Source: Hypericibacter adhaerens (GTDB lineage: Bacteria; Pseudomonadota; Alphaproteobacteria; Dongiales; Dongiaceae). Taken from it: a stretch of DNA of 64,000 bases. The notes beneath the pieces were generated by a model that did not search any database, had not been told where the DNA came from, and was given only the letters and a program-made list of their open reading frames with translations. The stretch spans positions 1,364,001-1,428,000 of the forward strand of contig NZ_CP042582.1 of assembly GCF_008728835.1 (NCBI RefSeq), read 5' to 3'. Positions 54,733 to 64,000 of this stretch are shown here, piece after piece. A program made the translations under genes and the position numbers. Every line of letters starts with the position of its first letter. Position 1 is the stretch's first letter.

Positions 54733-55656
<924 letters not shown>

Positions 55657-55666
55657 ACTGCTGCCA

Positions 55667-55966
55667 TCAAAGCTTCGTTCCGCACTTGGCGCATTCCCTT
55701 GGCACTCCAAGGCCACCCCAATACGCAAATTCTTCCCCAAAGATTTGAGCTTTCCTCTTGTAGATTCGTGTTCCGCAATTTGGGCATCGAAGACTGAGAA
55801 GGTAGGCGCCCGCCAGCGCCGGAACAATGACCGCAAGCACCAGCAGTAGCTTTATCTCTGTTGTAATTCCCCAGGCTCCGAGGCCCACAAAATTCAGAAA
55901 AGCGATGAATATCGCAATGATTGCCCGCTTTCGAACGGGCAGAGAATGTTTTCCTGTATCCGCCAT
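55667..55966 (-). CDS. Small membrane protein with C-terminal zinc ribbon
   Basis: The 99-residue protein has two predicted transmembrane helices, IIAIFIAFLNFVGLGAWGI and LLLVLAVIVPALAGAYLLSL, followed by CPNCGTRIYKRKA and a closing CAKCGTKL, a Cys4 zinc ribbon on the cytoplasmic side. It is not recognised as a named family. It is the last of three small genes downstream of the Rhs-type gene on the same strand, a position where immunity proteins often lie, but nothing in the sequence proves that role. ATG 55966 is the only sensible start. Confidence 0.55.
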   Translation of the reverse strand: MADTGKHSLPVRKRAIIAIFIAFLNFVGLGAWGITTEIKLLLVLAVIVPALAGAYLLSLRCPNCGTRIYKRKAQIFGEEFAYWGGLGVPRECAKCGTKL

Positions 55967-55990
55967 CTTATTCTTCGCTTACTTCTCGCA

Positions 55991-56055
55991 GGATGCGGGC
56001 ATCGAGGTGCGGGCGCGTTCAAATTCTTCCGCCGTTGATGTTCGATAAAGTTACC
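55991..56055. repeat. 65-bp island repeat, copy R2
   Basis: Direct, diverged copy of R1, again opening with the pgi-derived TGCGGGCATCGAGG. It lies between two small island genes, just downstream of the gene ending at 56122. Confidence 0.65.
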
Positions 56056-56121: not shown

Positions 56122-56706
56122 TCAGGCCAGATCTCTCGAACAGTCGAATTGCCCCATCAGCGACTCTGCGTTGGCAAGGTGTGTCTTCTCATTCGAGTAA
56201 AAGAAGATGTTTCCTTCCCAAAACTCGATCCTGTCGGAACTGCCACCAGCGATCAGCCACCCGTCCCAGCCATTAATGATGATGAGCGATGCGAGCCCAA
56301 TCAGGATCCCCGTCTCCCGGGCTTGCTCCTTGGAGATCCTCGTCTGATCGCGCTCATCGTAGGGATAAGGGTCAAAATAGTGTCCGGGCGCCTCGGATAA
56401 CGACCTGCTTTCACCTAGTCCCTGCCGTGCAGAGACAAAGAGATCGTAAGCGCTCGGAAACATGTCATCCCAGTGGTCGATCCAGAGCAATCGATGAGTG
56501 TAAGTCGAATGCCATCGATTCATGGCTTCGAGAAAGTCAACGAGGCGCCCTACATCACTTGGTGGTCTGCCACCAACTCGAGACTGTCGAGAAGCCATGT
56601 CGGGCCTCAGGACGAGGGTGGTGCGCCGCAAGTGAAGGGCAGGCTTCACGCTGAAGCCCTCCTGTCCAAACAGATTCTCGGCTTCTTTCGTGGTTAGGCA
56701 GCGCAT
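56122..56706 (-). CDS. Hypothetical protein downstream of the Rhs-type gene
   Basis: The 194-residue soluble protein, starting MRCLTTKEAENLFGQEGFSV, matches no family I recognise. It contains one short hydrophobic patch (GILIGLASLIIINGWDGWL, about 151-169) that is more like a buried beta-strand core than a membrane helix, and acidic stretches such as PYPYDERDQ. Immunity proteins of polymorphic toxins are often of this size and character. The ATG at 56706 follows GGAAGGGCGAG. An ATG at 56757 is an alternative start. Confidence 0.5.
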   Translation of the reverse strand: MRCLTTKEAENLFGQEGFSVKPALHLRRTTLVLRPDMASRQSRVGGRPPSDVGRLVDFLEAMNRWHSTYTHRLLWIDHWDDMFPSAYDLFVSARQGLGESRSLSEAPGHYFDPYPYDERDQTRISKEQARETGILIGLASLIIINGWDGWLIAGGSSDRIEFWEGNIFFYSNEKTHLANAESLMGQFDCSRDLA

Positions 56707-56895
56707 GTCGATAGTCTCGCCCTTCCAGCAGCTGGCACGGCACCAGCCCGCTTCCAAGCACCGTCACTACGTCCTTGATCCAAGCGATAACTGGGCTTGA
56801 CCGACATTAACAGCGCAATGCGGATTTCGTGCTTCACTATTCTGTAGTCGTGCGTTTGCTGCTATTTCAGAGACCGACCATCCATTCCCAAGCGC

Positions 56896-57156
56896 CTATC
56901 GCCGATCTCCTCTTCGATCCTCCCCAGCAGCATACTGTGGTAGGTCGTGGAGCGCGCGTTCGAATGCAGACTTTATCTCTGACTGACTGAAACCTCGATC
57001 CCACAGCTCCGTGGTCAAGTCGGCAATGACGACCTCGAGAGTGGGGCGACCGTAGGGGTTGCTTTGCCTTAGCTCTGCGCAGCTCAGTGCGAATTTATGA
57101 GCCTCGTCAAGACAACGCGTCTCCCATGGCGCTTCGCCTTTGTCTTTGCCTTTCAC
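56896..57156 (-). CDS. Small hypothetical protein after the Rhs-type gene
   Basis: The 86-residue protein is read from a GTG that has AGGAGG six bases upstream, better than the ATG 24 bases earlier. The sequence is helical and charged (LDEAHKFALSCAELRQ, LTTELWDRGFSQSEIKSAFE, RALHDLPQYA). No family is recognised. It begins 83 bases after the stop of the Rhs-type gene on the same strand, so it may be cotranscribed and could be the cognate immunity gene or an unrelated passenger. Confidence 0.5.
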   Translation of the reverse strand: MKGKDKGEAPWETRCLDEAHKFALSCAELRQSNPYGRPTLEVVIADLTTELWDRGFSQSEIKSAFERALHDLPQYAAGEDRRGDRR

Positions 57157-57239
57157 GGCATTCCTCCTGACTGTAGCCATGCCCGCTAAGAGCGGATGCG
57201 GCATGTATGTGTCGTCGCCTTGCCCTTGGATGGCGTCAC

Positions 57240-60200
57240 CTAGTAGGCGGGAGTGGAATAAAGCATCGTCCCTACGAAAGCTCCAACAGGACCGCCGAAT
57301 CGGACGATCGGAGGCAAGGGATTGGCCGGCAAGGGGTTAGGATGAGCCTGCTCTTCGGTTATGGGATTACCGTTTCGGTCAAACCTAGTCCAGGGCGTAC
57401 GGGGAGTATTGGTTTTCCAGTATCCTTGAGAACCTGGAGGCCCTCCCGGTGAACCTGGCGGCCCTCCTGGATTCTCTGGTGGAACCCATTGACACATCGA
57501 GCGCCCCCCGGGCTGCGGTGGTCCGAAAAATGCGCCTGGACGCTGACCTGGGCCTGCCGGTGTCCATGGACCTCCGGGTACAACACCATTTGGATCGGGG
57601 ATGCTCTGCAGGCCCTCAGGATCCGTGTAGAAAATCGGGTTGCTTTGTACGTAAGCGTACAAATTCCCCGCCGGATCACTCGCCTCCCCGACGGGATCGC
57701 GCGAGAGCCAACGGCCGGCCACAGGGTCGTATGCGCGGAACGGCGTCAGGTAGAGCCCACTGTCGGCATTGTAGAACGTGCCCGCATAGCCGAAGTCGGT
57801 GAGCGGGGCCGTCACTTGCAGCGCGTTGCCATAGGGATCATAGCTGTAAGCTGGTGCAGTAATGGTATCTGCGAACGCACGTCGGACCGAGCCGAGTTGG
57901 TCAACGCCGTAATAGTAAGGCTGCGCTGGTGATCCGGCCGCAAGCTCCCCTTCGGCGTAGTACTCCCTCGCTAGCGAATTGCTTGCGTCCCGCGCTTGAC
58001 ACAAGCGCATGCCGCACCAGAGATAAGAGGTCGTGATCGCGCTGCCCCCGCCTGCCGGCGTGCTGGTGATTGCGACCCGACGACCGAGGCCATCATACGT
58101 GAAAGCGGTCTGCTTCCCAGCTTGCCCCGGATAGGTGATGCCCACGAGGCGGTTCTCCGCGTCCCACGCAAAGCTGCGCACCCCGTCCGAGAGCAGGTTT
58201 CCGTTGGCATCGTAGGTCAATGTCTGCCCTGACAGGTCGGTCAGCTGATTGAGATTGTTGTAGCTGGCCGTCTGCACGCCGGGGCTGGGATATACGGCGG
58301 CACTGTCGCTGGTCTCCGTGATGTCGCTGATGAAGCTCTCGGGCGTCGTTGTGAACTGAAGGTTCGTGAACTGGCCTGCCGACAGGCCCACATTGCTGAT
58401 GCTGGCGAGCCGCCGATCGCCCGAGTTCGGGAGATAGCCCCAACTGGTCGCAAGGGTCGAGCTGGCGAGCTGACGCTGGGTTACCTGCCTTGTCTGCCCA
58501 AGATAGCTGAGTGTGAACTGCCCGAGGTCGCCCCCATGGCTGGTGAGCCGGCTGATGGCGTCGTAGCCGAAGGTCTCGGCTCCGGCGTTGCCGATGGTCC
58601 GGGATGCAAGTCGGCCGAGCTCATCGTAGTCATAAGTGATAGCGCTGTTCGAGAGAGGTCCGGTGTCTTGCTGAAGCTGAAGGGCGCCGAGGGATCCAAT
58701 GGGTATATAGCCGTACTGCGTAGTGCCGATCCCGTCGGTCATCGACACGACGCGCGGGAAATACGGATCGTAAGTGAAGCTCACGCTCGATGTCGGGTTT
58801 ATGGCGTTCAAATAGGAGATCTCCGCGAGGCGATCGTCGTTCGCGTAGCTGAACTGCTTCGTCTGCCCGAGCGCGTCCAGCACGGATTTCAGGTGGCTCG
58901 TCGTGGTTTCGTAGGTGTAGGTGACGGCGCTGCTGTCGGCGTAGGTCTTCTGGATGAGCCGCCCCTCGACATCGTAGCTCCAGCTTGTGGTGTGGCCGGC
59001 TGGGTCGGTCAGGCTCGTGAGCTGGCCGTTTCCGTTGTAGCCGAAGAGCATCTGCTGCCCGCGCGGGTCCGTGACCGCGGCCAGGCGCCGGTTGGCGTCA
59101 TGCGTGTAGCTCCAGAGCCGCCCTTGGCGGTCCTGAAACGAAGCGAGATCGAGCTTGTCGTAAGTGTAAAGGTCGGTCGTTCCATCGGGATAGGTGATCC
59201 TGGTGATCCGATCCGCGGCGTCATAGTCGTAGGTGGCTGTCCACCCTTCGGAGTCCGTGAAGGTTCGGATACGATCATAGGCGTCATAGGTGAAGCTGGC
59301 GGCGGTGACGTCGTTGGCGTTGATGATCGCGGTGAGGTCGCCGGTCGCGTTGTACTGGTAAGTAGTCTTCTGACCCAAGGGATTGGTTATCGATGTGACC
59401 TGGCCGGCAGCGTTATAGGTGAACAGGGTGGTTTGGCCGGCCGCATCGGTGTAGTAGATCGGCCGGTGCTGGTTGTTGTAGATGAATTGCGCGATCGTCT
59501 GCTGAACGCCATAGGCCATTGTCTGGCTTATGGCGGAGAGATCGATCTGGTTGGCATAGGAATACGACGTGGTGCGCCCCAGAGGATCGACGGTCTTGGT
59601 GACTTTGAAGAATCCTGCGGTGCCATAGGATGTCAGGCTGAGCTGCGTCGTGCCGTCGTCGAGCACGCGGCCCTGGGCGATCGGCTCGCCATAGGTACCT
59701 GTACGGTACGAGTTCGCCTGACCCGGATAGTTGAACCATATGCGATTTTCGAGCGGGTATTTGACGCTCTCGATGACAGCCGATTTCTGGTTCGTGTCAC
59801 CGGCGTGGAGGAAATGCCGCTCCCGGGCCTTGGTATAGTCGCAGCCCCCGGTGGGGGTACATCCGGCGGTGGCGTACGCGTCCTTGTCCCAATGGAAACT
59901 GTTGCGATAAACGAGGTACTGATTCGTCAGCGGGACCGGCATGCCCGAAGGCACAGTTCCCGCCGGATCGCTACTCGGGACCGGCGCGGGCTCGAGCCAT
60001 TCCTCTCGCTCGTTGTAGCCCATAGGATCCGTTACCTGAACAAAGCGCGGCGGGGCACTGGTCCCTGGCGCGGTGTAGGCGAAGCTTGTCGTCCCATAGG
60101 GTGTCGTCATGGAATTGACGAGCGAGTTGGCGTCGTAAGTGAAACTTGAGGTAAGGCCGATCACATCGGTGATGGAGCTGAGACGCCCAAGGGAATCATA

Positions 60201-61910
60201 AGCAAGAGACGCGCTGCGTCCGAACGGATCAGTGACCCCTGTTATCAGGAGCGGGCGGGCCGAGAGGCCGTAAGTGAAAGTTGTCTGCCGATCTGTCGCA
60301 TCTGTCAGCGAGGTGAGCCGCAGCTGGCCGTCATAGTTGAGCGTAAGCGCATTGCCCTGGGGATCGATGACCTGGCTCAGGAAGACGCGACGCGGATAGC
60401 TCGGGCTACCATCGGACTGGGCGTAGATCTCGACGCTACCGTCCCCCATCAGGCGCCGATAGGTTATAGGCGACTGCGATGCAAGAACGAGTACAGAGCC
60501 GTCGCTGCTCTGAATCGCAAAACGACCCGTGCTGCTCTGATATCCCGTGTAACTATACGCACCACCACCGGCGATATACCGAGACACGCTCCCACCGGGG
60601 TTTGTTGGGTCATCGGTTACATAGGTCAGCCAGTTCAAGGTCCATTTCGGGCTGACATTGAAGAAGCTGAAGTTCGCCGGCTGGCTGTCTTCCCTCTGGT
60701 TATAGGTGATCTGCACCTTTGCCGAGGGGCCGACGGGAGGCATGTATCCCACGGGGGTGTCAGAGAGACTCAGGCTCACTGTCGATTCGCCGATATTGTA
60801 GGTGCATAATGGACAGGGCCCATTTGCGCTCGGCGGGTCTGCCGGCGTATCTTGCGGGCCGGCAAGGCCCGGCGTCGTGCCGGTTGTCGCACCCTTGCCC
60901 CAAATCGTCTTGGCTTCCTTCTCATCGACCGCACGCCATCCAGCGCCGACGGGCGCTCCGGCTGGAGCCAGAAAATAGCCGCTCGCTTCGGCCTCAAGTG
61001 CCGCCTGCGTTACCCACAGCTCTCCGCTGGGAAGCGCGGAATCTTCGACGTGGAACCGCCCATTGGCTTGGCCCACGATGGCCGCAAAATGACCGATCTT
61101 CCAATGCACCACGGCTGGCACCGGGACCGGCTGCCCCGGCGCGCGGAAGAACATTCGGTGGTCGAAACCTGCCTTGGCCGCGAGTTCCCCTATCTCGGAG
61201 AGACTCGTGCCATTGTCGCTAGCCTGATACCATTGGAGAAACTCGACACTATCGACGCTGGCGCCTTTGGCGAGCATCATTGATCGCAGAGCCAGGGGCC
61301 CGCAGTTGAATAGATGCCTGGGGTCTCGCTTCACGAGCGCCAACTCTTCTCGAGCGCTTTGCACGGCCTCGGTCGCCGAGCCGGTTATTGGACGATCGCC
61401 GATCTCGTCGAAAAGCGCGGCTAGTTCCTTGTTCTTGCCAAGTGAGGCTTCTAGGTGAGCCAACTCGCCCACTGCGCGATCAACGAGCGCCTTGGCGTCC
61501 GGATCCGTGGCGTGCTTTCCCTCCCGCCAGGCGGTTTGCCACGCATCGAGAGCGCGCGAGAAATACCCGTCATGAAGATAGATCAGCCCCAAATTGGTAA
61601 GCAGCGCCGGGGCCCAGCCTGAATGCGGATAAGCCGCCACGAATTTGCTCAAGCTCTCGGCATCTTCCGGCGCTGTGCGCTGATTATAAACCGTCAAGGC
61701 CTGCGATAGCGCTCGGTTTTCGTCAGGTGTCGTCGGCTGGGTGGATATAAGCGGTTCCGGAAAATGGGCCGCTCGAATGACATTCTCGAGCGAAACATCG
61801 TTGGCTTCGGCGCTATCCCCTGTTTGCGCCAACGCTAGAGGTCCCGTGGCCAGCGACGCCAGCGTGGCGATCAGAGCCGTGAGCAACGCAAAATTCTGCT
61901 TGCCCCTCAT
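57240..61910 (-). CDS. Secreted YD-repeat (Rhs-type) protein with N-terminal C39-like peptidase
   Basis: A 1556-residue protein starting at an ATG with AAGGAGG nine bases upstream. Residues 1-29 are a signal peptide ending ALA-Q. Residues 66-135 look TPR-like. Residues 200-312 resemble a C39 bacteriocin-processing peptidase: Cys203 in FNCGPLALRS, His274 in WKIGHFAAIVG and Asp290 in FHVEDSAL. From about 400 to 1430 come at least a dozen YD repeats (YDSLGRLSSITD, YDAADRITRITYPDG, YDVEGRLIQKTY) and the Rhs core end PVAGRWLSRDPVGE, then FYTDPEGL. The last 122 residues differ: a Gly/Pro linker, GYWKTNTPRTPWTRFD and NGNPITEEQAHP, and a hydrophobic end. The C-terminus is the expected toxin position, but no toxin fold is recognised. 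Confidence 0.88.
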   Translation of the reverse strand: MRGKQNFALLTALIATLASLATGPLALAQTGDSAEANDVSLENVIRAAHFPEPLISTQPTTPDENRALSQALTVYNQRTAPEDAESLSKFVAAYPHSGWAPALLTNLGLIYLHDGYFSRALDAWQTAWREGKHATDPDAKALVDRAVGELAHLEASLGKNKELAALFDEIGDRPITGSATEAVQSAREELALVKRDPRHLFNCGPLALRSMMLAKGASVDSVEFLQWYQASDNGTSLSEIGELAAKAGFDHRMFFRAPGQPVPVPAVVHWKIGHFAAIVGQANGRFHVEDSALPSGELWVTQAALEAEASGYFLAPAGAPVGAGWRAVDEKEAKTIWGKGATTGTTPGLAGPQDTPADPPSANGPCPLCTYNIGESTVSLSLSDTPVGYMPPVGPSAKVQITYNQREDSQPANFSFFNVSPKWTLNWLTYVTDDPTNPGGSVSRYIAGGGAYSYTGYQSSTGRFAIQSSDGSVLVLASQSPITYRRLMGDGSVEIYAQSDGSPSYPRRVFLSQVIDPQGNALTLNYDGQLRLTSLTDATDRQTTFTYGLSARPLLITGVTDPFGRSASLAYDSLGRLSSITDVIGLTSSFTYDANSLVNSMTTPYGTTSFAYTAPGTSAPPRFVQVTDPMGYNEREEWLEPAPVPSSDPAGTVPSGMPVPLTNQYLVYRNSFHWDKDAYATAGCTPTGGCDYTKARERHFLHAGDTNQKSAVIESVKYPLENRIWFNYPGQANSYRTGTYGEPIAQGRVLDDGTTQLSLTSYGTAGFFKVTKTVDPLGRTTSYSYANQIDLSAISQTMAYGVQQTIAQFIYNNQHRPIYYTDAAGQTTLFTYNAAGQVTSITNPLGQKTTYQYNATGDLTAIINANDVTAASFTYDAYDRIRTFTDSEGWTATYDYDAADRITRITYPDGTTDLYTYDKLDLASFQDRQGRLWSYTHDANRRLAAVTDPRGQQMLFGYNGNGQLTSLTDPAGHTTSWSYDVEGRLIQKTYADSSAVTYTYETTTSHLKSVLDALGQTKQFSYANDDRLAEISYLNAINPTSSVSFTYDPYFPRVVSMTDGIGTTQYGYIPIGSLGALQLQQDTGPLSNSAITYDYDELGRLASRTIGNAGAETFGYDAISRLTSHGGDLGQFTLSYLGQTRQVTQRQLASSTLATSWGYLPNSGDRRLASISNVGLSAGQFTNLQFTTTPESFISDITETSDSAAVYPSPGVQTASYNNLNQLTDLSGQTLTYDANGNLLSDGVRSFAWDAENRLVGITYPGQAGKQTAFTYDGLGRRVAITSTPAGGGSAITTSYLWCGMRLCQARDASNSLAREYYAEGELAAGSPAQPYYYGVDQLGSVRRAFADTITAPAYSYDPYGNALQVTAPLTDFGYAGTFYNADSGLYLTPFRAYDPVAGRWLSRDPVGEASDPAGNLYAYVQSNPIFYTDPEGLQSIPDPNGVVPGGPWTPAGPGQRPGAFFGPPQPGGRSMCQWVPPENPGGPPGSPGGPPGSQGYWKTNTPRTPWTRFDRNGNPITEEQAHPNPLPANPLPPIVRFGGPVGAFVGTMLYSTPAY

Positions 61911-62070: not shown

Positions 62071-62340
62071 TTATGGCGCTGTCCACAAGAAGCAACCCCA
62101 TACGCCCGAGCCCCATGTCGGAGCCGAGGATGCGCTCGCGTTCGATTGTGAGGTCCTGTTGCCCGTGGCGTCGTAGGCATAAGCGACGCACAGTCCATTG
62201 TCGTACACGGCTGTGGTGAGGCGTCCCAGCTCGTCATACGTGTACGACGTGGAGGCGCGGAGGTTTCCCGGAAGCAAGAGGAACGTTCCCGCAATTGCCA
62301 GTGCCAGGAGCATCCTCGTCTTTCCGCTTCCAGCGATCAT
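62071..62340 (-). CDS. Tiny secreted protein with two YD repeats
   Basis: The 89-residue product starts at an ATG with GAAGGAG six bases upstream. Residues 1-30 form a signal peptide (TRMLLALAIAGTFLLLPGNL), followed by YTYDELGRLTTAVYDNG and YAYDATGNRTSQS, two Rhs-type YD repeats, and a Ser/Ala/Trp-rich end. It precedes the large YD-repeat gene on the same strand. It may be a remnant of a longer Rhs gene, or a real small partner; the intact signal peptide and ribosome binding site argue that it is expressed. Confidence 0.6.
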   Translation of the reverse strand: MIAGSGKTRMLLALAIAGTFLLLPGNLRASTSYTYDELGRLTTAVYDNGLCVAYAYDATGNRTSQSNASASSAPTWGSGVWGCFLWTAP

Positions 62341-62728: not shown

Positions 62729-63601
62729 ATGGCGACAACCAAATTGCCTTTGGCTGCAGTCGTGATGCTCATCGCACTATTGCTGTTTCTCCCGAAGAAT
62801 TCCTTCGCCGCCTGTAGCATCCCGCATCAGCTGACCAACGGTCAGGTGGCGGATGCGACTGCCGTTATGGATGACGTGAACGCAGTTGCGGCTTGCGCGG
62901 ATGCAGCCGTCGTTCCGACCGGCACGCCTCAAGCGGGTGCCGTGACCGTCTTCACCGGCCCCAATAGCATAACCAGCGGCGACTTGACGGGCGATGTGAC
63001 CACGTCTGGAGGAACGGCAACTTCGCTCTCGCCAACAGGCGTGACACCGGGAACTTACAACAATGCAAGCGTCACGGTTGATAGCAAGGGACGTGTTACG
63101 GCCGTTTCAAGTGGAGCGGGCGTTACATCCTTCACCAAATACACAGTCGCACAGGGAGGGGACGCATTTATAGATGTTCCCCTCGCTGCAGACGGAGGGT
63201 TTGCCTATCATGTATTCATTAAGGGAGTCCCATCGGCGAATGCCGGGATCGGGTTCAGGATTTCAAGCGATAACGGCGCAACCTTTTATTCGGGATCAGG
63301 CGATTACAAATGGGGAACTACCGGCTCAGATAGTTATGTCAATATATCGGCTGGAAGCACAGTGGGATCGGGGAGAGAAACGCTTATAGATTTCACTTTG
63401 GCCGGGATGAATGTCGTGGCGACCGATAGATTCGATCTGACGGGAGGGGTGTTCTCAATACTCTCCAGCGGAACACCAATAAACGGACATATCGGCGGCA
63501 CAGCCAATGCTGTAGGCAGCAACAACTTCAATGCATTTCGGATTTTTGCGCTTGCAGGGACTATGGACGGCTTTGCCGTTTATGTGGGACGGCTCTACTA
63601 G
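62729..63601 (+). CDS. Secreted protein with phage-tail-fibre-like segment
   Basis: The 290-residue product has a signal peptide (LPLAAVVMLIALLLFLPKNS, ending FAA-C) and is therefore exported. CSIPHQLTNGQVADATAVMD resembles the N-terminal LTNG-type segment of phage tail fibres, and TPGTYNNASVTVDSKGRVTA is a motif common in tail fibres and collar adhesins. The remainder is Gly/Ser/Thr-rich beta structure. The ATG follows GCAGGAGAAG. It is transcribed away from the YD-repeat genes and toward pgi. A cell-surface or adhesin-like function is possible. Confidence 0.7.
   Translation: MATTKLPLAAVVMLIALLLFLPKNSFAACSIPHQLTNGQVADATAVMDDVNAVAACADAAVVPTGTPQAGAVTVFTGPNSITSGDLTGDVTTSGGTATSLSPTGVTPGTYNNASVTVDSKGRVTAVSSGAGVTSFTKYTVAQGGDAFIDVPLAADGGFAYHVFIKGVPSANAGIGFRISSDNGATFYSGSGDYKWGTTGSDSYVNISAGSTVGSGRETLIDFTLAGMNVVATDRFDLTGGVFSILSSGTPINGHIGGTANAVGSNNFNAFRIFALAGTMDGFAVYVGRLY

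Positions 63602-63621: not shown

Positions 63622-64000
<379 letters not shown>

What the first reader, a model, noticed from the sequence alone, without database searches (positions are those of the whole stretch)
57240..61910. Rhs-type protein carrying its own C39-like cysteine peptidase
Secreted YD-repeat proteins usually have an N-terminal export or PAAR domain and a C-terminal toxin. Here a signal peptide and TPR-like region are followed by a domain with the C39 triad layout (Cys203, His274, Asp290). C39 peptidases normally cut double-glycine leaders in bacteriocin exporters. In this place the domain might process the Rhs shell, free the C-terminal piece or act on a neighbour. I do not know this combination as a described system.
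Basis: partly seen in the sequence, partly recalled or inferred. Interest (0 to 1): 0.62.

Follow-up and report, generated by a model that had tools for sequence, protein, structure and literature searches.

The report
Toxin shell with self-docked C39-like peptidase
A secreted bacterial toxin-carrier protein contains a peptidase-like domain whose active site is predicted to hold the protein's own next segment, which suggests that the protein cuts itself loose from its delivery end; this is untested.

Summary
In detail: a 1556-aa ORF with a signal-peptide-like start, a TPR-like region, a C39-like domain (Cys203/His274/Asp290) and an Rhs shell. AlphaFold gives a C39 fold (pLDDT 96; Z 13.6 to LahT). 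Cys and His are kept in 88 of 88 aligned rows, Asp in 87 of 87.

The combination is not unknown: GenBank names a Rhizobium homologue "Rhs ... peptidase C39-like". The protein fits a Sec-type Rhs polymorphic toxin with a variable tail and a gene directly downstream.

New here: right after the C39 fold lies a conserved 18-residue segment (W..V...E...V.GKG.T) with the spacing of a double-glycine leader, the substrate of C39 peptidases. Removing it from the AlphaFold run erases strand pairing at F201, T235, S236 and catalytic His274, so the model lays it across the active site. I predict self-cleavage at Lys339|Gly340, splitting the TPR-C39 module from the toxin shell. P1 is Lys, not Gly, and the usual oxyanion Gln is Pro, so a non-cleaving pseudosubstrate remains possible.

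Related proteobacterial loci also carry a secreted one-YD-repeat protein and fibre-like proteins. Cleavage is untested.

The parts
57240..61910 (-). Rhs polymorphic-toxin-like gene, 1556 aa
   Evidence: ORF; Pfam/NCBIfam; 87 related loci aligned
61827..61910 (-). signal-peptide-like start, aa 1-28 (by eye: charged start, hydrophobic stretch, ALA|Q)
   Evidence: sequence; no predictor was run
61323..61730 (-). TPR-like helical region, about aa 61-196
   Evidence: AlphaFold model and VIA-align rows to TPR domains; Pfam TPR_2 below cut-off
60957..61316 (-). C39-like papain-fold domain, aa 199-318; Cys203 codon 61302-61304, His274 61089-61091, Asp290 61041-61043
60885..60938 (-). leader-like extension, aa 325-342 (W325, V328, E332, A333, I336, G338, K339, G340, T342); predicted scissile bond K339|G340 at 60893/60894
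   Evidence: alignment and counts; DSSP difference of two models
60816..60884 (-). linker aa 343-365, very variable in length among relatives
57609..60815 (-). YD/Rhs repeat shell, aa 366-1434, with Rhs-associated core aa 1357-1434
57243..57608 (-). C-terminal tail (putative toxin), aa 1435-1556; similar tails in L031 and, at the last residues, L006; otherwise variable
56896..57204 (-). 102-aa ORF 35 nt after the toxin stop codon, candidate immunity gene
   Evidence: position; 54 of 60 loci have such an ORF, control 23 of 60; no relative among the neighbour ORFs of the loci
62071..62340 (-). small secreted protein with one YD repeat unit and a WGxGxWGCFxWT-type end (start at ATG 62340 inferred)
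   Evidence: relatives in 26 of 87 other loci; Pfam RHS_repeat
62729..63601 (+). fibre-like secreted protein, 290 aa (start at ATG 62729 inferred)
   Evidence: relatives in 26 of 87 other loci; no Pfam or PHROGs family of its own

Best explanation
This is a Sec-exported Rhs polymorphic toxin whose N-terminal module is TPR + C39-like peptidase + a leader-like segment in cis. SHOWN by computation: the C39 fold, the conserved triad, the conserved extension with the spacing of a double-glycine leader, a model that lays that extension across the active site, variable C-terminal tails, and an ORF directly downstream. INFERRED: after export and folding, Cys203 attacks the bond after Lys339 (W-G-K|G) and separates the TPR-C39 module from the YD shell, which encloses the C-terminal toxin. 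Other Rhs proteins make an N-terminal cut by different means (TseI: two glutamates; RhsA: unknown). The toxin itself is freed by the aspartyl activity of the Rhs core. The cleaved module may stay bound and act as plug or adaptor. In Proteobacteria the secreted one-YD-repeat protein and the fibre-like proteins are probable partners for surface display or target binding.
For: Fold: Foldseek ComA 5xe9 E 4.9e-4, LahT 6mpz 6.1e-4; VIA Z 13.6 rmsd 2.5 over 117 residues (6mpz_B), 13.2 (5xe8_A); the family profile finds LahT at 2.4e-6 and ComA at 3.2e-5 by sequence. Triad. Extension: of 85 complete rows G338 84, G340 84, [VIL]336 83, W325 81, E332 69, K/R339 70. The pattern [VILMA]x3[ED]x3[VIL]xG matches at this register in 70 of 85 rows by alignment column, 69 by ungapped offset, and in none at the 60 shifts of -30..-1 and +1..+30. 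Published recognition: ComA Leu-12, Glu-8, Leu-7 before the double Gly; LahT V-4, L-7, L-12, with -11..-4 helical and -3..-1 extended in the complex (PMC6363468, section 9 and passages). The model has a helix at aa 330-333 (-10..-7) and an extended W337-G338 (-3,-2). Re-predicting with the extension removed loses strand/bridge at F201, T235, S236 and H274; the only other change among 279 positions is D114 at the end of a TPR helix. Toxin features: full Rhs core; tails 7% mean column identity against 47% for the N-terminal module; one HNH and one Tox-REase-7 match among 52 tails; downstream ORF in 54 of 60 loci, control 23 of 60.
Against: P1 would be Lys/Arg (70 of 85), whereas C39 peptidases of RiPP exporters cut after GG, GA or GS (PMC10885120 passage). 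Position -7 is Ala or Gly (74 of 85), not Leu; in LahT Lys or Asp at -7 had a strong negative effect, and Glu-8 was not needed. The Gln six before Cys is Pro in 79 of 88 rows, Gln in 1. No curated leader family matched any of 84 extension segments (a weak test for so short a segment). The rows are relatives, so the leader match is one evolutionary observation: the pattern also occurs at 49 other sites in 122,887 aa of these proteins, about 1% for a 30-aa stretch, and I noticed the segment before choosing the pattern. No export route across the outer membrane was identified: the genome's one secretin match is below the GspD cut-off.
Confidence: 0.5

Rival explanations
1. Pseudosubstrate clamp: the C39-like domain binds the extension permanently and never cuts it, acting as a structural cap or adaptor between the TPR module and the shell, as the inactive C39-like domain of HlyB acts by binding.
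For: Oxyanion Gln replaced by Pro in 79 of 88 rows; conserved Lys at P1, unlike GG/GA/GS; VIA also aligns the HlyB domain, Z 10.2 for 3zua and 10.1 for 7sgr.
Against: Cys and His are kept in 88 of 88 rows and Asp in 87 of 87 over several phyla, which a pure binding domain need not keep; HlyB's domain lacks activity (PMC6363468 passage; loss of its Cys is recalled). In the LahT complex the Gln is 4.3 A from the thiohemiacetal oxygen and His101 can do its job.
Confidence: 0.25
2. Trans-acting processing: the domain cuts or links a neighbour, such as the one-YD-repeat protein or the fibre-like protein, and the cis segment only regulates it. An acyl-enzyme at Lys339 could also be resolved by an amine, giving a sortase-like transfer.
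For: Neighbours look secreted and each type has relatives in 26 of 87 other loci; the looser leader pattern occurs in 12 of 44 fibre-like members.
Against: The pattern with GG/GA/GS occurs in 0 of 27 one-YD-repeat and 0 of 44 fibre-like members, and the looser one in 0 of 27 one-YD-repeat members; loci without recognised neighbours of these kinds keep the domain.
Confidence: 0.13
3. The C39-like domain is itself the toxin (Tox-PL-C39 of Zhang et al. 2012).
For: C39-like peptidases are listed as polymorphic-toxin domains; VIA aligns the CDI toxin 8ssk (Z 11.6) and the papain-like toxin/immunity pair 9l5u (Z 12.1).
Against: It is N-terminal and constant (47% mean column identity), while the C-termini vary (7%) and include HNH and Tox-REase-7.
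Confidence: 0.05
4. C-terminal release: the domain cuts between shell and toxin.
Against: Complete Rhs core present, which does this by aspartyl cleavage in TseI and RhsA (passages); a leader-like site is adjacent to the domain, not at the C-terminus.
Confidence: 0.05

Closest known systems
Peptidase C39 domains of PCAT/AMS exporters (LahT, ComA, PCAT1; PF03412)
   Same: Fold, triad order, Pfam cut-off passed, leader-like substrate spacing
   Different: Not fused to an ABC transporter; substrate segment is in cis and C-terminal to the enzyme; P1 Lys; no oxyanion Gln
T6SS Rhs effectors with N- and C-terminal self-cleavage (TseI, RhsA)
   Same: YD shell, Rhs core, C-terminal toxin, a cut between N-terminal module and shell (predicted here; shown there: PMC7170923, PMC8765631, passages)
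   Different: No PAAR domain found, signal-peptide-like start, no T6SS sheath gene found in the genome; a candidate cysteine peptidase instead of shell glutamates (TseI) or an unknown mechanism (RhsA)
RHS polymorphic toxins with N-terminal processing peptidases (ZU5, PrsW types of Zhang et al. 2012, PMC3482391, passages)
   Same: N-terminal processing peptidase ahead of an Rhs region; variable toxin tail
   Different: C39-like enzyme plus TPR, with a built-in leader-like site
Rhs repeat-associated core/peptidase C39-like protein AJC83316.1, Rhizobium etli IE4803
   Same: Homologue with the same architecture (51% over the N-terminal region)
   Different: Different C-terminal tail; annotation only
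Bacterial teneurin-like proteins (PMC13018210, passages)
   Same: Secreted YD shell with polymorphic, in part toxic, C-terminal domains
   Different: The words C39 and TPR do not occur in the main text of that paper; no sequence comparison was made

Membership tests
Peptidase C39 (PF03412) | Cys-His-Asp triad | tested here: met
   88/88, 88/88, 87/87
Peptidase C39 (PF03412) | papain-like C39 fold | tested here: met
Peptidase C39 (PF03412) | profile score over curated cut-off | tested here: met
   28.5 bits, cut-off 22
Peptidase C39 (PF03412) | Gln six residues before Cys (proposed oxyanion residue) | tested here: not met
   Pro in 79 of 88 rows, Gln in 1; its role is questioned for LahT. Therefore called C39-like, not filed as a C39 peptidase
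Peptidase C39 (PF03412) | N-terminal domain of an ABC exporter | tested here: not met
   no ABC domains in this protein
Peptidase C39 (PF03412) | cuts after GG/GA/GS | not testable with these tools
   predicted site is GK|G
Double-glycine leader (segment aa 325-342) | hydrophobic -12 and -4, E-8, G-2 | tested here: met
   70 of 85 rows by column, 69 by offset
Double-glycine leader (segment aa 325-342) | Leu-type residue at -7 and Gly/Ala/Ser at -1 | tested here: not met
   Ala/Gly at -7 in 74 of 85; Lys/Arg at -1 in 70 of 85
Double-glycine leader (segment aa 325-342) | match to a curated leader family | tested here: inconclusive
   0 of 84; the segment is too short for a strong test
Rhs polymorphic toxin | YD/RHS repeats and Rhs-associated core | tested here: met
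Rhs polymorphic toxin | variable C-terminal domain behind constant shell | tested here: met
Rhs polymorphic toxin | immunity gene directly downstream | tested here: inconclusive
   54 of 60 loci have an ORF of 80 aa or more there, control 23 of 60; the ORFs were not searched for immunity families as a set, and ten of the 54 are 869-1740 aa
Rhs polymorphic toxin | toxicity and neutralisation | not testable with these tools
   -
T6SS Rhs effector | PAAR/prePAAR domain | tested here: not met
   none up to E 1
T6SS Rhs effector | T6SS in the genome | tested here: not met
   sheath PF05943 0 matches in the one-contig genome; the family rings in the E. coli control. Only this component was searched
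Tc toxin BC | SpvB/TcdB-type N-terminal domains | tested here: not met
   none up to E 1

The most novel reading that the evidence does not exclude
A papain-like peptidase that carries its own bacteriocin-type leader behind it and uses it as a self-cleaving (or acyl-transfer) hinge between a delivery module and an Rhs toxin shell. In Proteobacteria it would form a secreted system with a one-YD-repeat protein and exchangeable fibre-like proteins; in other phyla the partner would be a lectin- or RCC1-type surface protein.
Probability: 0.4. Interest if true: 0.72.

Novelty: new variant of a known kind. Interest (0 to 1): 0.56.

Why it matters
N-terminal self-cleavage of Rhs proteins is known but its mechanism was left open for RhsA (PMC8765631 passage). 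Here is a conserved family with a recognisable cysteine peptidase and a named candidate site, so it can be tested with one mutant. It would also show a bacteriocin-maturation enzyme and its leader recruited together into a large toxin, and point to fibre-like partners that could decide the target cell.

Tried and rejected
Viral origin: the viral-contig scan with A1 found no relative; the fibre-like protein had no match in phages or plasmids and no PHROGs family, though one relative (L017) matches a tail-fibre family over 58 residues. T6SS delivery: no PAAR, no sheath. Type II secretion: the one secretin match scores 137 bits against the GspD cut-off of 351, so unproven.

Naming the toxin tail: no Pfam or NCBIfam family, no plasmid match, only the own genome among 385 class genomes. 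The single-sequence PDB search of the N-terminal part was uninformative (best rows nanobodies and TPR proteins, ComA at 0.74). Literature: no paper in the held library has 'peptidase C39' with 'RHS repeat', 'C39' with 'YD repeat', 'RHS repeat-associated core' with 'C39', or 'double-glycine' with 'rearrangement hot spot'; two have C39, peptidase, Rhs and polymorphic toxin together, of which I looked into one (PMC3482391). Only open-licence PMC papers are held. Rarity: 1 of 17 order genomes and 1 of 385 class genomes (at most six candidates scored per genome) carry the N-terminal module, in each case the own genome, so these counts may miss copies.

Dropped rows: of 9 plasmid records 7 were fetched; of 91 loci the tool kept 80; all 87 were aligned, near-identical pairs (such as L077/L078, L009/L024) not removed; 3 rows of 88 (L070, L088, L091) lack a complete extension and are outside the counts of 85. 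The tail set A4 holds the window and 51 of the 59 loci with a complete protein; L007, L011, L024, L046, L047, L069, L076 and L078 were left out, and eleven tails were cut by length because no core boundary was found. The neighbour search covered 6 kb upstream and 4 kb downstream, as far as contigs reach.

Full report
OBSERVATION. The ORF is real and as described. It runs from 61910 to 57240 on the minus strand and gives 1556 aa. Pfam finds 14 RHS stretches, Peptidase_C39 above its cut-off, and a sub-threshold TPR; NCBIfam finds the complete Rhs-associated core at aa 1357-1434. The start looks like a Sec signal by eye. The window is part of a one-contig 5.87-Mb genome.

RELATIVES. tblastn in plasmids gave 9 records, five of Rhizobium, at 42-57% identity; one is already annotated as Rhs/peptidase C39-like. 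A scan of genome contigs with the seven-row alignment A1 gave 91 relatives, of which 80 were kept; record titles name Alpha-, Beta- and Gammaproteobacteria (or genera of these), myxobacteria, Verrucomicrobia, Fibrobacteres and Melainabacteria. With 7 plasmid loci this makes 87 loci. Cys203 is 88/88, Gly204 88/88, His274 88/88, Asp290 87/87, Gly234 88/88, the window counted in. The scan patterns included the His motif, so that count is partly selected; in the seven rows of A1 (window and six plasmid proteins found without motif filter) all three triad residues are invariant.

FOLD. The alignment of 67 rows gave a model of aa 40-345 with mean pLDDT 96.4. The C39 part matches LahT and ComA and the profile finds both by sequence. 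VIA Z for 6mpz_B is 13.6 over 117 residues at 2.5 A; other chains match the TPR-like first part at Z up to 11.5, a range the tool warns is common for helical repeats. The Gln six before the nucleophile, proposed as the oxyanion residue in C39 enzymes, is Pro in 79 of 88 rows. In the LahT complex that Gln is 4.3 A from the thiohemiacetal oxygen and the catalytic His may serve instead (PMC6363468, section 9).

THE LEADER-LIKE SEGMENT. After the last C39 strand (EASGYFLVP in the consensus) comes W325-x-x-V328-x-x-x-E332-A333-x-x-[VI]336-W337-G338-K339-G340-x-T342, then a linker of very different length, then the shell. With G338 as -2 this gives hydrophobic -12, E-8, hydrophobic -4, G-2. ComA's rule is Leu-12, Glu-8, Leu-7 before the double Gly; LahT uses V-4, L-7, L-12, with -11..-4 helical and -3..-1 extended (PMC6363468). 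In LahT, however, Glu-8 could be replaced, and a nearly invariant Glu-5 of those leaders has no counterpart here. In 85 complete rows: G338 84, G340 84, V/I/L336 83, E332 69, V328 61, A or G333 74, K/R339 70. The pattern fits 70 of 85 rows by column (69 by offset) and none at any of 60 shifts; the positions are kept in both the 27 rows with and the 58 rows without the one-YD-repeat neighbour. The pattern was chosen after I saw the segment, the rows are related, the pattern has 49 other matches in 122,887 aa, and curated leader families do not hit the segment.

THE MODEL TEST. I predicted the same protein with the extension removed, from the same 67 sources. Of 279 shared positions five change in DSSP: F201, T235, S236 and H274 lose strand or bridge; D114, a TPR helix end, changes too. 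The extension itself carries E at R326-A327, W337-G338 and A341 and a helix at 330-333. So the partners of the extension are taken to be the residue two before Cys203, the loop after invariant Gly234, and the catalytic His. That is where a bound substrate would lie, with the Lys339-Gly340 bond between the paired residues. This is an inference from one pair of predictions, without coordinates.

TOXIN LOGIC. The N-terminal module has 47% mean column identity and the tails 7%, the latter over unequal and partly unalignable segments. Of 52 tails one matches HNH and one Tox-REase-7; most match no family. The window's tail resembles that of L031 and, at its end, L006, while the window's downstream ORF has no detectable relative among their neighbour ORFs. 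An ORF of 80 aa or more starts at the toxin stop in 54 of 60 loci, against 23 of 60 in the reverse-strand control. The Rhs core is the aspartyl protease that frees the toxin in TseI and RhsA (PMC7170923 abstract and passages; PMC8765631 passages). Both also have an N-terminal cut, by two glutamates in TseI and by an unknown mechanism in RhsA. That makes an N-terminal cut the natural job for the domain here.

NEIGHBOURS. A small, secreted-looking protein with one YD repeat unit, two invariant Cys and a WGxGxWGCFxW end has relatives in 26 of 87 other loci plus the window, upstream on the same strand except in L038, where it is 3.2 kb away on the other strand. Fibre-like proteins with a constant start (C..PN.LTNGQ.ADA..VM.NFNA) and varying ends occur in 26 of 87 other loci, up to four recognised copies. 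Record titles of these loci name proteobacterial groups or genera (L036 only 'Sphingomonas-like'). Of 13 other loci picked for a large ORF directly upstream ten were scanned: nine encode Laminin_G_3, RCC1, TSP3 or CHB_HEX_C_1/Fn3-type domains above cut-off and one (L071) has only sub-threshold matches. A role in binding targets is a guess.

SETTING. The gene sits on an island of lower GC (58.2% against 65.9% for the window) between two copies of the 3' end of a gene that I recognise from memory as pgi. Same-genus genome G014 has one copy, with the left flank adjoining it, and no match to the N-terminal module.

VERDICT. Known kind (Rhs polymorphic toxin), unusual N-terminal enzyme already visible in annotation, with a new and testable mechanism: a C39-like peptidase with its own leader-like segment docked in cis. 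Cleavage 0.5, non-cleaving clamp 0.25.

Noticed in passing
55390-55609 and 63628-63848: Duplicated 3' end (about 90% identical) of a gene recognised from memory as pgi flanks an 8.2-kb lower-GC island holding the Rhs locus; same-genus genome G014 has a single copy, with the sequence left of 55390 adjoining it. No integrase family among the island ORFs scanned.
   Followed up: partly
55989-56052 versus 55590-55653: A further 64-nt copy (83%) of the junction sequence, with a 99-aa Zn-ribbon-like ORF (55667-55966) between the two: perhaps repeated insertion at one site.
   Followed up: no
56122-56757 (-): 211-aa ORF without any Pfam or NCBIfam family, downstream of the candidate immunity gene.
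   Followed up: no
L042, L089, L039, L049, L058, L044, L060, L048, L055, L045: In these ten loci, all with verrucomicrobial names in the record title, the ORF at the toxin stop is 869-1740 aa long, not a small immunity-like gene.
   Followed up: no
L001, L003 (own genome): Two further C39 matches in the same genome (74 and 26.8 bits); the reading frames around them were not worked out.
   Followed up: no
L054, L057, L072: Three loci share a different secreted-looking 198-224-aa protein directly upstream of the Rhs gene.
   Followed up: no
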